Positions 21,263 to 25,579 of a stretch of 64,000 bases of DNA are shown here, in pieces. The notes under the pieces are model-generated. The model searched no databases and was not told the origin of the DNA. It saw only the letters and a list, made by a program, of their open reading frames with translations. Where the stretch lies: the NCBI RefSeq assembly GCF_004364865.1, contig NZ_SOAU01000001.1, positions 2,884,001 through 2,948,000 of the forward strand, read 5' to 3'. The stretch is from Ilumatobacter fluminis (GTDB lineage: Bacteria; Actinomycetota; Acidimicrobiia; Acidimicrobiales; Ilumatobacteraceae). The position numbers were made by a program, and so were the translations under genes. Positions within the stretch are counted from its first letter, which is position 1, and each line of letters starts with the position of its first letter.

Positions 21263-22489
21263 GTGGGAGAAACGACCGAGGTCGTACCGAAACCGGCAGT
21301 CGGCGACCTGCTCCGGCTGCCGCCGTTCCGGGCGCTGCTCGTCGCCAACATCTTGTCGGCGACGGTGTTCGGGACGAGCCGTTTCGTGTTCGTCTGGCTC
21401 GTCGGCGAACTGACCGACTGGAACCCGGCGACGGCGATCCTCGGGATCGTGATCGGCCTCCCTCCGCTGTTCCTCAGTGCGTGGGCCGGTTCGCTCGCCG
21501 ACTACCTGGCGCCGAAGCGACTCGGTGCGATCCTGTTCGTCATCAGTGCCGTCATGTTCACGGTCACCGCGCTCCTCGTCCAGACCGACACGATGACCGT
21601 GGCGCTCACGATGGTGACGGGACTGGTCGCGATCGCCGCGCCGTCGATGCTGATGCCGCTGATGCAGGCGCTCGTGCCGACCGTGTCACCGAAGGAACAG
21701 TTGATGCAGGCCGTGGCGCTGCAGAACCTGAGCATGATGATCTCGACGATCGGCGGCATCTTCCTCGGTGGCGCCGTCATGCAGGGCTTCGGCACGGCGG
21801 CCGGCTTCTGGCTCTTGGTCGTCGCCAGCGTGCTCGGACTCGCCGTCGTGTCGAGGGCGCCGCTGCCGGACCGGCTGATCGGGGCCGCCGCCACCCGCGG
21901 GTCGGTGTTCGACGGCATCCGCATCGCGCTGGGCACCGAGCCGCTCCGGTCGCTGTTGGCGATCACCGGCGTGCTGGGGGTCGCGATCGCGACGTCGTCG
22001 CTGCTGCTCCCGGAGTTCGCCCGCGACGTGCTCGGCAAGGACTCGCTCGCCGCGAGCGCGCTGAACGTGGCGATGAGCATCGGCATGATGATCACCTCCA
22101 TGGTCTTGGCCAACCGCTGGACGCCGAGCCGCCCTGGCTTGGTCCTCGCGTTCTTCACCTCGGTCCCGCTCGGCGGTGGTCTCGTGGCGATCGGTCTGTC
22201 GCGCGAATACGCCATCACGATGCTATGTGGCTTCGTCTGGGGACTCAGTGGCGGCATCGCGATGACGGTGCTCCGCACGCTGACACAGCAGCACACCCCG
22301 TCGGAACTGATGGGGCGCGTGATGGGCCTCGTCGCAATGGCCCAGAACGGGGCGTTCCCGATCACGGCGCTCGTGCTGTTCGGGCTGGTCGCTGCGACCA
22401 GCGTGTCGACGGCGATGGTCGTCATCGGACTGCTGTGTTGCGCTCTGGTCGGGCTCGTGGTGGCCCGGCCGACCGTTCGCTCGCTCTGA
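21263..22489 (+). CDS. MFS transporter (probable exporter)
   Basis: 408 aa, about 12 hydrophobic segments, in two halves with a cytoplasmic break around TRGSVFDGIRIALGTEP. The first loop WAGSLADYLAPKRLG carries the D-x-x-x-x-x-R signature of loop 2-3. The style resembles EntS-like MFS exporters (MFS_3). I placed the start at the GTG 21263 so that the protein begins VGETTEVV just before the first transmembrane helix; the open frame further upstream would cover the divergent GNAT promoter. Substrate unknown. Confidence 0.85.
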   Translation: MGETTEVVPKPAVGDLLRLPPFRALLVANILSATVFGTSRFVFVWLVGELTDWNPATAILGIVIGLPPLFLSAWAGSLADYLAPKRLGAILFVISAVMFTVTALLVQTDTMTVALTMVTGLVAIAAPSMLMPLMQALVPTVSPKEQLMQAVALQNLSMMISTIGGIFLGGAVMQGFGTAAGFWLLVVASVLGLAVVSRAPLPDRLIGAAATRGSVFDGIRIALGTEPLRSLLAITGVLGVAIATSSLLLPEFARDVLGKDSLAASALNVAMSIGMMITSMVLANRWTPSRPGLVLAFFTSVPLGGGLVAIGLSREYAITMLCGFVWGLSGGIAMTVLRTLTQQHTPSELMGRVMGLVAMAQNGAFPITALVLFGLVAATSVSTAMVVIGLLCCALVGLVVARPTVRSL

Positions 22490-22507: not shown

Positions 22508-22870
22508 ATGTCGTCCGAGACGTCGGTCGTCGACACTGGCGGCATGCCCACCGCTTCGGAGTATCGGCACATTGCGACGGTGCTCGACGACGCCCGCCAT
22601 CAACTCGACACGCTCGCCGCACAGTTGCGCTCCCTGGCCGATGGGCTCGTGTTGTCCGGCCCGCAGCGCACGGCGATCGACGCCACGACCGGCGTCTCGC
22701 TCGCGAACATCCGGGCGGCGACCGTCGACCTCGAACAGCAAGCCGTCGAGGCCCGGCACCGGGCGACGATCTGCGATGCGTACACGGCGGCGTACGGTCG
22801 CTTCCTGCGGTCCGACGAGGTCGACGCCAGCCCGCCACAGCGTCCCGCTCCGTGGGTGCGCTATGGGTGA
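22508..22870 (+). CDS. Small helical protein resembling a WXG100-like secretion partner
   Basis: 120 aa, not assigned by signature. Residues about 18-100 are predicted mostly helical with two long amphipathic stretches (IATVLDDARHQLDTLAAQLR and IRAATVDLEQQAVEARHRA) separated by a turn GLVLSGPQRTAID. This resembles the W-x-G hairpin of ESX substrates although the tryptophan is absent. There is no signal peptide. It overlaps the next gene by 8 bp (22863-22870), so both are made together. Alternative start at the ATG 22544. I infer a heterodimer partner or chaperone for the larger protein; nothing proves secretion. Confidence 0.5.
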   Translation: MSSETSVVDTGGMPTASEYRHIATVLDDARHQLDTLAAQLRSLADGLVLSGPQRTAIDATTGVSLANIRAATVDLEQQAVEARHRATICDAYTAAYGRFLRSDEVDASPPQRPAPWVRYG

Positions 22871-24197
22871 CGCCCTGACGCTCGACACCGCCCAGGTCGG
22901 GCTGACGGCGTCGCGACTCGACGATCTCGCCGAGCGGGCACGCGATCAGGCGGCCTCGATCGAGACGGCGCTCGTCACTGCCGAACTGTCGAGGTCGTCG
23001 GTCGCGATCGTGCGCGAGCTCGGCGACGAACTTGTTGCGCTCGCCAGGTTCCTCACGGCGACCGTCGAACAGGCCGAGCTCGCCGACCGCTTCGGCTCGT
23101 CGATCAGCAGCGAAGGGTGGTTCGCCGCGATGCGCGCCGATTGGGTCGATGCGGAACGGAGCCTGTGGGCGGGCTTGAACGACGACGTCGGCGCAACGGG
23201 TCTCGAAGCCGGAGAGTTCTCGCTCGCTCGGTCGATCGTCGCGCTCGACCGTTCGATCTGGATGCAGACCGCGATCCCGCCCGGCTGTCGGTCGTTCGGA
23301 CCCGACGCCTACTACACCGGCGGCGGTGCCGTCCGCGGGCCCGACGGGAGGCTCTACCCGATCGTGATCCCGCACGTCGACCGAGGCGACGAGCACTACA
23401 CGATCGACGCCGACATCCCCGACGGCATCCCGACCGCCGCATCGCTCGACGGGCAGGATCCGGGATGGGTCGTCGTGTCGTACCGGACAGGGGTCGAGCA
23501 GGTCCACGCCGAGATCTCGGGGGTCTGGCAGACGCTGCTGTCACTCGCGTTCGCCACTGGGCTGCGAGCTCCGGCCACCGTCGACGACGACCACCTCGAG
23601 GCGATCGAGATCCGACTCGGAGGTCGGCCGACCTTCGTCGGGTCGACGTCGGCGACCGGAAGCGGCGGCGTCGACGTGACGACCGGGCAGGGTATCCAGC
23701 CGCACACCGGGCCCGTCGTCGACGGTCGCATCGGTGGCCGCAACGCCGACGGCAGCCCACGCACGAAGCCGCTCCCGACCCCGCCGGCCTCACCGGGCAC
23801 CGTCGCCCACGCCAACCGACACGTGAACGCTGCGTCACTCGTCATCAACGGGTTGCAGGGCGTCCAGGTCGCGCTGTCGGTCAACGACGCGAATCATCGC
23901 GCCTACGAAGTCATCCTCGAAGAACACGCCGACGGACGACTGCGGGCACGGGTCCAGACCTTCCACCTCGAACCGCGCCGAGACACGGTGCTCGTCGCCG
24001 GGTGGCACCTCTTCGTCGACGACGACGGCGCGCTCCGGCAGAGCCCGGTCAAGTACCAGACGCCGCCCGACGACGACGCAGCCGACGATGGGAACGATGA
24101 CGGTGAGCCCGACGGCGACGACGACCCGGTCGCCGTCAACGGACTCGACCACGACTACACACCGAAGGTCCCCAACCCGGCCTTCGACACCGATTGA
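22863..24197 (+). CDS. Protein with WXG/LXG-like helical N terminus and an unrecognised C-terminal domain
   Basis: 444 aa. Residues 1-105 are helical (LTASRLDDLAERARDQAASI, ELGDELVALARFLTATVEQA), like the targeting domain of type VII-associated polymorphic toxins. Residues about 110-260 include SFGPDAYYTGGGAVRGPDG and DPGWVVVSYRTGVEQVHAEI. The C-terminal region (GTVAHANRHVNAASLVINGL...HRAYEVILEEHADGRLRAR) has two histidine-bearing segments but matches no family I know. It ends in an Asp-rich tail. ATG at 22863 overlaps the end of the preceding gene. No immunity gene is evident downstream. Function unknown. Confidence 0.55.
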   Translation: MGDALTLDTAQVGLTASRLDDLAERARDQAASIETALVTAELSRSSVAIVRELGDELVALARFLTATVEQAELADRFGSSISSEGWFAAMRADWVDAERSLWAGLNDDVGATGLEAGEFSLARSIVALDRSIWMQTAIPPGCRSFGPDAYYTGGGAVRGPDGRLYPIVIPHVDRGDEHYTIDADIPDGIPTAASLDGQDPGWVVVSYRTGVEQVHAEISGVWQTLLSLAFATGLRAPATVDDDHLEAIEIRLGGRPTFVGSTSATGSGGVDVTTGQGIQPHTGPVVDGRIGGRNADGSPRTKPLPTPPASPGTVAHANRHVNAASLVINGLQGVQVALSVNDANHRAYEVILEEHADGRLRARVQTFHLEPRRDTVLVAGWHLFVDDDGALRQSPVKYQTPPDDDAADDGNDDGEPDGDDDPVAVNGLDHDYTPKVPNPAFDTD

Positions 24198-24286: not shown

Positions 24287-25336
24287 ATGAACATGGTGCG
24301 GACACGATGGGCGGCGATCGGCGCAGTGATCGCCATCACGTTGGGAGCGGGCGGCGTCGGGCTGGTCGAGGCAACGAAGGGAACCGGCGATCGGACGGTG
24401 TTCACGAGCGTCGCCTCGTGCCGGTTGGTCGACACCCGGCCGGCCAACGGCATCGGCGGACGCGTCACACCACTCGGCCCGACCGACACGCACACGGTCT
24501 CGGCTCGCGGCACCAGCGGCGAGTGCTCCGACATCCCGGTCGACGTCCGAGCGGTGGCGCTCAACATCACCGCACTCGGTGCCAGCGAGCCGACCCACCT
24601 CACCGTGTGGCCCGGCGGCGACGTGCCCAACGCGTCGAGCCTGAACCCGTCGCCGGGTCAGCCGCCGGTGCCGAACGCGGTGACGACCCCGTTGTCGGTC
24701 GACGGCACGTTCGACGTGTTCAACTTCGCCGGCACGGTCCACGTCGTCATCGACCTCGTGGGCTATCACCAGGACCACCACCACGACGACCGCTACCACA
24801 CCAAGACGGAGGTGGACGGCCTGCTCGCCGACAAGGTCGACGCCGGCGACGTCTATGCGCGCAGCGATGTCGACCAACGCCTGGCAGCGAAGGCAGACAC
24901 CGACTCGGTGTGGACCAAGGGACAAGCCGACGGACGGTACGCGAACCGGCAGGTCGTCGAACGGACCCTGCCGTACGCGATCCGCAGCTCGTCGTTCGGT
25001 GGGTCGCAACTGTCGACCAACGACCGGACGGTGTTGTCGTTGTCGTACGAACTCCCGCAGGGTGGCCAGCTCGTCGTCGGCTACAGCGGCATCGTCTATG
25101 GCAATCCGGGCGATCGGGCCAACTGTTCGGTCGGCACCTCCACCAGTTTCTCGTGGGCGAGCGGCACCAGTGAGATCGACTTCGGTGACGGCGTCGGCAC
25201 GGCGACGATCTCCGGCACGCGCGTCATCGACTTCTTCAGTGCGTCACAGGGAGCCGTCCGTCTCGTGTGCAAGAACTCCGATGCGACCGCCTCGATCGGC
25301 AACATCGAACTCAACGCCCTCGTGCTGCCGAACTGA
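24287..25336 (+). CDS. Secreted surface protein: Acidimicrobiia-type beta domain plus tail-fibre-like repeats
   Basis: 349 aa. Residues 1-28 are a signal peptide or N-terminal anchor (WAAIGAVIAITLGAGGVGLV). Residues about 33-160 form the domain often seen in actinobacterial surface proteins: ASCRLVDTRPANG, VRAVALNITALGA, HLTVWPGGDVPNASSLN, VPNAVTTPLSV and VVIDLVGY. Then comes a His/Asp stretch (HQDHHHDDRYHT) and repeats of the type YTKTEVDGLLADK / YARSDVDQRLAAK, which resemble phage tail-fibre trimerisation stalks. The C-terminal third is beta-rich with two cysteines. Start ATG 24287. It may be an extracellular adhesin-like trimer, by inference. Confidence 0.7.
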   Translation: MNMVRTRWAAIGAVIAITLGAGGVGLVEATKGTGDRTVFTSVASCRLVDTRPANGIGGRVTPLGPTDTHTVSARGTSGECSDIPVDVRAVALNITALGASEPTHLTVWPGGDVPNASSLNPSPGQPPVPNAVTTPLSVDGTFDVFNFAGTVHVVIDLVGYHQDHHHDDRYHTKTEVDGLLADKVDAGDVYARSDVDQRLAAKADTDSVWTKGQADGRYANRQVVERTLPYAIRSSSFGGSQLSTNDRTVLSLSYELPQGGQLVVGYSGIVYGNPGDRANCSVGTSTSFSWASGTSEIDFGDGVGTATISGTRVIDFFSASQGAVRLVCKNSDATASIGNIELNALVLPN

Positions 25337-25399: not shown

Positions 25400-25579
25400 T
25401 CAGCCGTCGCCGAGCTTGTCGACCGCGTCCTTCGCCGCGTCGGCAGCCTGATCGATCTTGTCGGAGCCGACCTTGTCGCCGAGCTTGTCGTCGGCGACGT
25501 CGGCAGCCTTGTCGATGCCGTCGGTGATCTTGTCGTCGTGCTTGCCGACGAGATCCTTGGCCTTGTCGAACAGTCCCAT
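25400..25579 (-). CDS. MT0933-like small antitoxin-family protein
   Basis: 59 aa: MGLFDKAKDLVGKHDDKITD followed by a charged Asp/Lys/Ala-rich helix to KDAVDKLGDG. This matches the MT0933 (Rv0909-type) antitoxin family. The start at 25579 is fixed by a strong ribosome-binding site (AGGAGG, about 7 nt upstream). No toxin gene of the Rv0910 type is adjacent; the neighbours are unrelated and in other orientations. It may therefore be an orphan that acts as a stress-related, CsbD-like small protein rather than an antitoxin. Confidence 0.7.
   Translation of the reverse strand: MGLFDKAKDLVGKHDDKITDGIDKAADVADDKLGDKVGSDKIDQAADAAKDAVDKLGDG

What the first reader, a model, noticed from the sequence alone, without database searches (positions are those of the whole stretch)
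22508..24197. Overlapping pair resembling a WXG100-type partner and an LXG-like effector with a new C-terminal domain
A small two-helix protein overlaps by 8 bp a 444-aa protein with a helical N terminus and a C-terminal domain that fits no family I recognise. The layout is that of type VII-linked polymorphic effectors, yet no secretion ATPase or obvious immunity gene is adjacent.
Basis: inference. Interest (0 to 1): 0.68.

Follow-up and report, generated by a model that had tools for sequence, protein, structure and literature searches.

The report
Paired genes resembling type VII cargo
Two overlapping genes encode a small hairpin-shaped helper and a larger protein of unknown activity, and they belong to a family of such pairs whose large proteins share a front end but carry different back ends, a layout like that of proteins exported by bacterial type VII secretion machines.

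Summary
The pair is real: 120 and 444 aa, overlapping by 8 bp, conserved with its overlap in 4 of 10 genus genomes. Neither protein matches Pfam or NCBIfam above cut-off. The small protein models as a two-helix hairpin whose best PDB matches are WXG100/Esx/PE-PPE proteins, but it lacks W-x-G. A profile of it found 10 further genus loci, one in this genome 1.7 Mb away, each with a large gene directly downstream; another pair lies in a different family of the order. The large proteins share a ~90-residue N-terminal domain (leave-one-type-out, 0 of 1000 shuffles each) but differ afterwards: calpain protease (Pfam), GHSxG protein, glycine-rich, and three unknowns including this one. The genome encodes an EssC-like ATPase 1.38 Mb away. 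A relative of the N-terminal domain sits in a T7SS-like locus. Best reading: a T7SS-type cargo/partner pair of an unmodelled family, not a member of WXG100 or LXG. Pairing, export and the C-terminal activity are inferred.

The parts
22508..22870 (+). Small partner gene, 120 aa, WXG100-like two-helix hairpin without W-x-G
   Evidence: ORF; AF2 model pLDDT 84; PDB neighbours Esx/PE; 14-member family
22652..22663 (+). Bend between the two helices, residues 49-52 (L-S-G-P), the place where WXG100 proteins have W-x-G
   Evidence: Helix limits; sequence
22760..22783 (+). Partner signature RAxxCxx[YH], residues 85-92
   Evidence: Present in 14 of 14 partners; R85, A86, C89 invariant
22802..22816 (+). 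F-x3-D, residues 99-103, like the Lap1 motif; in 3 of 14 partners only
   Evidence: motif in Lap1 from PMC9600955
22835..22855 (+). Partner signature PxxPxxW, residues 110-116
   Evidence: 14 of 14 partners; P110, P113, W116 invariant
22863..22870 (+). 8-bp overlap of the two genes
   Evidence: conserved in homologues
22863..24197 (+). Large gene, 444 aa
   Evidence: homologues in 4 of 10 genus genomes
22863..23132 (+). Shared N-terminal domain, residues 1-90, predicted helical
   Evidence: Leave-one-type-out profile tests; profile-profile alignment to the GHSxG type covers only residues 4-83
23244..23636 (+). Most conserved central region, residues 128-258, with invariant C142, H171, H178, D182; unknown fold
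23892..24068 (+). Conserved C-terminal region, residues 344-402, predicted strands at low confidence
24069..24194 (+). Poorly conserved acidic tail, residues 403-444

Best explanation
The pair is one member of a family of type VII secretion (T7SS)-type cargo pairs. Shown here: a small WXG100-like protein is encoded directly before a large protein, and the large proteins share an N-terminal domain but differ in the rest. Inferred: coupled translation makes both together; their helical hairpins pack into one bundle in the cytosol; the bundle is recognised by the EssC-type FHA/FtsK ATPase encoded elsewhere in the genome; the large protein is exported, and its C-terminal part acts outside. In this member that part is conserved, of unknown fold and possibly an enzyme (invariant Cys142, His171, His178, Asp182). 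A conserved secreted activity is more likely than a fast-changing rival-killing toxin, because the C-terminal part is conserved within the type and no immunity gene travels with the pair.
For: Partner fold: first 30 PDB Foldseek hits and VIA-align ranks 1-15 are T7SS proteins. Family: 10 of 10 further partner loci at E <= 1e-3 have a large gene directly downstream; partners score 46-74 bits and N-terminal domains 10-39 bits in leave-one-type-out tests, 0 of 1000 shuffles each. Six C-terminal types, one a Pfam calpain. A hit to the N-terminal domain in another family of the order lay behind an unsought partner gene, E 1.4e-22, itself behind a helical protein with W-T-G. In G503 the N-terminal domain is next to a WXG100-like gene, an FHA/FtsK ATPase gene and a kinase gene. 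The own genome has an EssC-like ATPase, TIGR03928 E 2.4e-150.
Against: No sequence match of either protein to WXG100, LXG or PE/PPE models. No W-x-G in the partner; Y-x3-[DE] in 1 of 14 partners and F-x3-D in 3 of 14. Partner profile shows no similarity to the WXG-like protein beside the own ATPase. The ATPase scores below the EssC cut-off (502 against 778 bits), and a WXG100 search of the own genome found nothing at E <= 0.01. ATPase presence does not track the pair. Foldseek E-values are weak (0.1 or more) and helical hairpins match easily. The large-protein model is poor. The G503 relative has no partner of this family directly upstream, and the W-T-G protein in L088 does not hit PF06013.
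Confidence: 0.7

Rival explanations
1. A cytosolic enzyme family with a dedicated small helical chaperone or regulator. The N-terminal domain docks the partner, which controls activity or stability; nothing is exported.
For: No known export motif in most partners; no adjacent machinery in the window; no Pfam match to WXG100; the GHSxG type lies between acyl-CoA dehydrogenase and ClpB genes.
Against: One shared N-terminal domain on unrelated C-terminal domains is typical of trafficking modules. A relative sits in a T7SS-like locus, and the best solved neighbours of the partner are T7SS proteins rather than random hairpins.
Confidence: 0.17
2. An antibacterial toxin of the LXG kind: the C-terminal part kills competitors and an unrecognised immunity gene protects the producer.
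For: Six C-terminal types behind one N-terminal domain; presence in only 4 of 10 genus genomes and in two different neighbourhoods; in L081-L083 a further gene follows the large gene closely.
Against: C-terminal regions are the conserved ones in this type. The downstream 349-aa gene of the window was not called in L002, and a different gene follows in L007, so no immunity gene is conserved. No toxin family hit.
Confidence: 0.1
3. The partner is a chance two-helix hairpin and the genes have no relation to T7SS or to the other pairs.
For: Hairpins and coiled coils match many proteins; designed coiled coils top the PDB sequence searches with the partner profiles.
Against: 14 partners share RAxxCxx[YH] and PxxPxxW and score far above shuffles, and each precedes a large gene with the shared N-terminal domain.
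Confidence: 0.03

Closest known systems
LXG effectors with Lap1 (DUF3130) and Lap2 (DUF3958) partners, T7SSb (PMC9600955, abstract and passages read)
   Same: Small WXG100-like partner genes beside a large protein with a helical N-terminal domain and variable C-terminal domain; L088 has two small helical genes before the large one; this type's partner has F-x3-D as Lap1 has.
   Different: No LXG Pfam hit; F-x3-D in only 3 of 14 partners; no adjacent immunity genes recognised; a different phylum.
PE/PPE pairs, T7SSa (described in PMC9600955, passages; otherwise recalled)
   Same: Small two-helix protein encoded with a larger partner that has a helical N-terminal domain; PE25 and PPE4 are among the structure matches.
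   Different: No PE or PPE Pfam hit; Y-x3-[DE] in 1 of 14 partners.
T7SSd/e and other variants with FHA-bearing ATPases, kinases and RHS substrates (PMC11217815, abstract and passages read)
   Same: G503 locus: WXG100-like gene, FHA/FtsK ATPase gene, kinase gene; own genome: FHA ATPase beside a DUF6531/RHS-like gene.
   Different: Acidimicrobiia are not mentioned in that paper's main text; the subtype was not assigned here.
DUF7162 (PF23721) with a downstream hydrolase-like gene, as in L033
   Same: Small helical gene overlapping by 4 bp a larger gene whose protein has W-R-G and GHSYG; one of four partners hits DUF7162 at E 0.11.
   Different: The similarity is not significant.

Membership tests
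WXG100 (PF06013), small protein | Match to the Pfam model | tested here: not met
   0 of 4 members of this type hit it at E <= 10
WXG100 (PF06013), small protein | W-x-G in the bend between two helices | tested here: not met
   The bend has L-S-G-P; no W-x-G in 13 of 14 partners, and in the other it is not in the bend
WXG100 (PF06013), small protein | About 100 residues folded as a helical hairpin | tested here: met
   Predicted only: AF2 pLDDT 84, best PDB matches EsxA/EsxB
LXG (PF04740), large protein | Match to the Pfam model at the N terminus | tested here: not met
   0 of 4 members hit it at E <= 10
LXG (PF04740), large protein | Shared N-terminal domain with interchangeable C-terminal domains | tested here: met
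   Six types share the N-terminal domain; within this type there is no swapping
PE/PPE | Match to the PE or PPE Pfam models | tested here: not met
   No such hit at E <= 10
T7SS substrate in general | Known export motif (Y-x3-[DE], or F-x3-D in Lap1) | tested here: inconclusive
   Y-x3-[DE] absent in this partner; F-x3-D at residues 99-103, but in only 3 of 14 partners
T7SS substrate in general | EccC/EssC-type ATPase in the genome | tested here: met
   TIGR03928 502 bits, E 2.4e-150, below the 778-bit cut-off; relatives YukB and EccC5 in the PDB
T7SS substrate in general | Export that depends on the machinery | not testable with these tools
   Needs an experiment
Polymorphic toxin | Cognate immunity gene and toxic C-terminal domain | tested here: inconclusive
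   No conserved neighbour gene across the four members of this type; toxicity not testable here

The most novel reading that the evidence does not exclude
Acidimicrobiia have their own T7SS cargo superfamily: a partner without W-x-G, marked by RAxxCxx[YH] and a C-terminal PxxPxxW, pairs with a ~90-residue docking domain that carries interchangeable modules, including a calpain-type protease and, in this window, a new domain possibly built around an invariant cysteine. The partner motifs would be a further T7SS export or pairing signal beside WXG/YxxxD-E and LXG/FxxxD.
Probability: 0.5. Interest if true: 0.75.

Novelty: new variant of a known kind. Interest (0 to 1): 0.6.

Why it matters
If true, type VII-type cargo reaches into a little-studied actinobacterial class with its own partner family that the WXG100, LXG and PE/PPE models miss. 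A genome that looks almost free of T7SS substrates by those models would have several, and the partner signature gives a direct way to list them. It also makes testable whether a different conserved motif can do the work of the known export signals.

Tried and rejected
Searches for the 444-aa protein outside the genus: 221 family, 397 order, 395 class and 396 phylum genomes (overlapping draws, own genome included) gave, outside the genus, only weak partial hits below 25 bits. The G058 hit was judged chance. All 15 weak loci were scanned with the two family profiles; only L076 (a real pair) and L022 (N-terminal domain, later L089) stood out. These searches scored only 4-7 candidates per genome, so distant members can be missed.

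No fold search was run on the large protein because its model has mean pLDDT 36. PDB profile searches gave no relative for it (one hit at E 0.62), none for the GHSxG type, and mainly designed coiled coils for the partner, which reflects helical composition; an LXG chain, 8gmh_B, appeared at E 0.8 only. A missing match is no evidence of a new fold. 'Hydrolase-like' for the GHSxG type rests on a recalled motif, not on a database hit. NCBIfam and PADLOC gave nothing useful for the large proteins. Plasmid records and viral contigs gave no relative.

Paper searches: T7SS with Acidimicrobiia, Ilumatobacter with WXG100, and DUF7162 returned none; calpain with T7SS and actinobacteria returned one general review. 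Read: abstract and passages of PMC11217815 and passages of PMC3482391 and PMC9600955; everything else only as listings. That the family is undescribed is claimed only against these searches and against Pfam and NCBIfam.

The shuffles keep composition but not helix periodicity. As a second control the profiles were run over 3,481 ORFs of the held loci (overlapping loci counted repeatedly): after the family, the next hits of the N-terminal profile built without this type were mainly WXG100 genes (E 0.018 upward), but the held loci were partly fetched for such genes.

Full report
What is there. The window carries a 120-aa ORF (22508-22870) overlapping by 8 bp a 444-aa ORF (22863-24197), both on the + strand. 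Upstream is an MFS-type transporter gene (21263-22489; name from sequence, recalled) and downstream a 349-aa protein gene (24287-25336). No Pfam or NCBIfam model claims either protein. A close relative (L002, 65% identical over 448 columns) comes from a record titled Acidimicrobiaceae bacterium, so the window is probably from that class.

Conservation of this type. The large protein occurs in 4 of 10 genomes of the genus, the window's included. The partner is upstream in 4 of 4, with overlaps of 8, 8, 8 and 11 bp. L002 and L006 share the window's neighbourhood; the fourth, L007, lies elsewhere. The MFS orthologue is followed by unrelated genes in two genomes without the pair, G101 and G054. 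The pair is therefore accessory within the genus. Against L002, L004 and L005, residues 1-80 are 46, 40 and 25% identical, residues 128-258 are 72, 73 and 50%, and residues 344-402 are 78, 68 and 63%. This is the reverse of a toxin with a constant head and a variable tip, but four sequences from one genus are few.

The small protein. AlphaFold2 gives a two-helix hairpin (16-46 and 52-101, mean pLDDT 84). In the PDB the first 30 Foldseek hits are T7SS proteins (EsxA, EsxB, WXG100 or PPE chains; E 0.1-1.4), and VIA-align ranks 1-15 are Esx or PE chains with Z 8.9-10.4 before unrelated helical proteins begin. For helical bundles such Z values can mean only a common arrangement, so this is support and not proof. 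In the bend the sequence is L-S-G-P, with no W-x-G.

A family of pairs. A profile of the four small proteins found, in the 10 genus genomes, 10 further loci at E <= 1e-3. All 10 were fetched; weaker matches of that call were not followed except by fetching the regions around two of them, where the gene calls showed no pair. In all 10 a large gene follows directly on the same strand. In L087 the partner match lies at the contig end; its large protein was not used in training and still hits the N-terminal profile at 28.6 bits. Nine of these, the four above and the L088 pair below give 14 pairs: 11 of 14 overlap by 4-11 bp and three are 1, 1 and 12 bp apart (some starts are my choice). All 14 partners carry RAxxCxx[YH] and PxxPxxW; R85, A86, C89, P110, P113 and W116 are invariant.

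What follows the shared head differs. (A) The window's unknown region. (B) A protein with an invariant GHSxG motif, near acyl-CoA dehydrogenase and ClpB genes in several loci, one of them in the window's own genome (L078:7647-9334, that is G000:C1:4592647-4594334). It has no Pfam or PDB match, so 'hydrolase-like' is a recalled motif reading. (C) A calpain-family cysteine protease, PF00648 E 1.9e-16 (L081). (D) A glycine/alanine-rich tail (L083). (E) A 533-aa protein without a match above cut-off (L082). (F) A 622-aa protein without a match above cut-off (L088).

Homology of the head. Profiles built from the other types score the N-terminal 90 residues of each type at 10-39 bits and the partners at 46-74 bits; 0 of 1000 shuffles of each sequence reached its score. 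The weakest is L005 (10.2 against a shuffle maximum of 9.8). A profile-profile alignment of types A and B aligns only residues 4-83 with 3-85 (pairwise E 4e-4, probability 35%): the head and nothing else.

Outside the family. A weak order-wide hit to the head of the large protein (G1067, 23.5 bits) lay behind a partner gene that the search had not used (E 1.4e-22). Immediately before that partner is a 164-aa helical protein with W-T-G (L088:7343-7837); it does not reach PF06013, so WXG100 is read from its sequence only. In G503 a 577-aa protein with the same head (30.8 bits over 3,481 ORFs; 37.6 bits on its first 90 residues, 0 of 1000 shuffles) is encoded next to a WXG100-like gene (21.6 bits, below cut-off), a 1,385-aa FHA/FtsK ATPase gene and a protein-kinase gene. 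No partner of this family is directly upstream there.

Machinery in the own genome. At G000:C1:4286359-4290678, 1.38 Mb from the pair, lies a 1,439-aa protein with FHA and FtsK domains and hydrophobic stretches near residues 231-273. It matches TIGR03928 EssC over residues 237-1174 (502 bits, E 2.4e-150, cut-off 778); EccC and YukB chains are among its best solved relatives. Beside it are a 210-aa RHS-repeat/DUF6531-like protein and a 194-aa protein with a weak WXG100 match (21.3 bits, below cut-off). A PF06013 search of the own genome at E <= 0.01 found nothing. Open frames over 1,300 aa with FtsK matches occur in 9 of 10 genus genomes, so the ATPase does not track the pair.

Mechanism. Shown: gene pairing, shared head with different tails, and a machinery-type ATPase in the genome; the WXG100-like fold of the partner is predicted. 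Inferred: coupled translation, a hairpin bundle, recognition by the ATPase, export. LXG toxins with Lap1 and Lap2 are reported to work this way (PMC9600955, passages). This type's partner has F-x3-D at 99-103, the Lap1 motif, but only 3 of 14 partners do, so it may be chance. What the C-terminal part does is open; invariant C142, H171, H178 and D182 allow an enzyme.

Verdict. The pair should not be filed as WXG100 or LXG, but as a member of a family of T7SS-type cargo pairs that Pfam and NCBIfam do not model.

Noticed in passing
L081:6862-8399 (genus genome G079): A calpain-family protease (PF00648) carries the same N-terminal domain behind a partner gene; a lipoprotein-like gene follows 24 bp later.
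   Followed up: partly
L083:7364-9442 (genus genome G079): Partner plus a glycine/alanine-rich, partly hydrophobic large protein; a 237-aa gene overlaps its end by 4 bp and could be a cognate gene.
   Followed up: no
L021:1795-10488 (genus genome G112): A second T7SS-like locus: FHA/FtsK ATPase, FHA proteins and a true WXG100 protein (PF06013, 56 bits).
   Followed up: partly
L032:2359-6678 (own genome): The first ~80 residues of the EssC-like ATPase, before the FHA domain, look ubiquitin-like by eye; this was not tested.
   Followed up: no
L033:2-1680 (genome G655): A DUF7162 gene overlaps by 4 bp a gene for a W-R-G-bearing, GHSYG-bearing protein beside a gene recalled as pafA: a similar small-plus-large layout.
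   Followed up: partly
window 25400-25579 (-): 59-aa protein matching MT0933_antitox (PF14013, E 2.3e-15).
   Followed up: no
window 24287-25336 (+): 349-aa protein with a hydrophobic N terminus 89 bp after the pair; not called in L002, where the next gene downstream follows directly.
   Followed up: partly
window 23916-24086 (residues 352-408): Sub-threshold match to ABC_trans_aux (PF03886) in 3 of 4 members; a shared strand pattern or chance.
   Followed up: no
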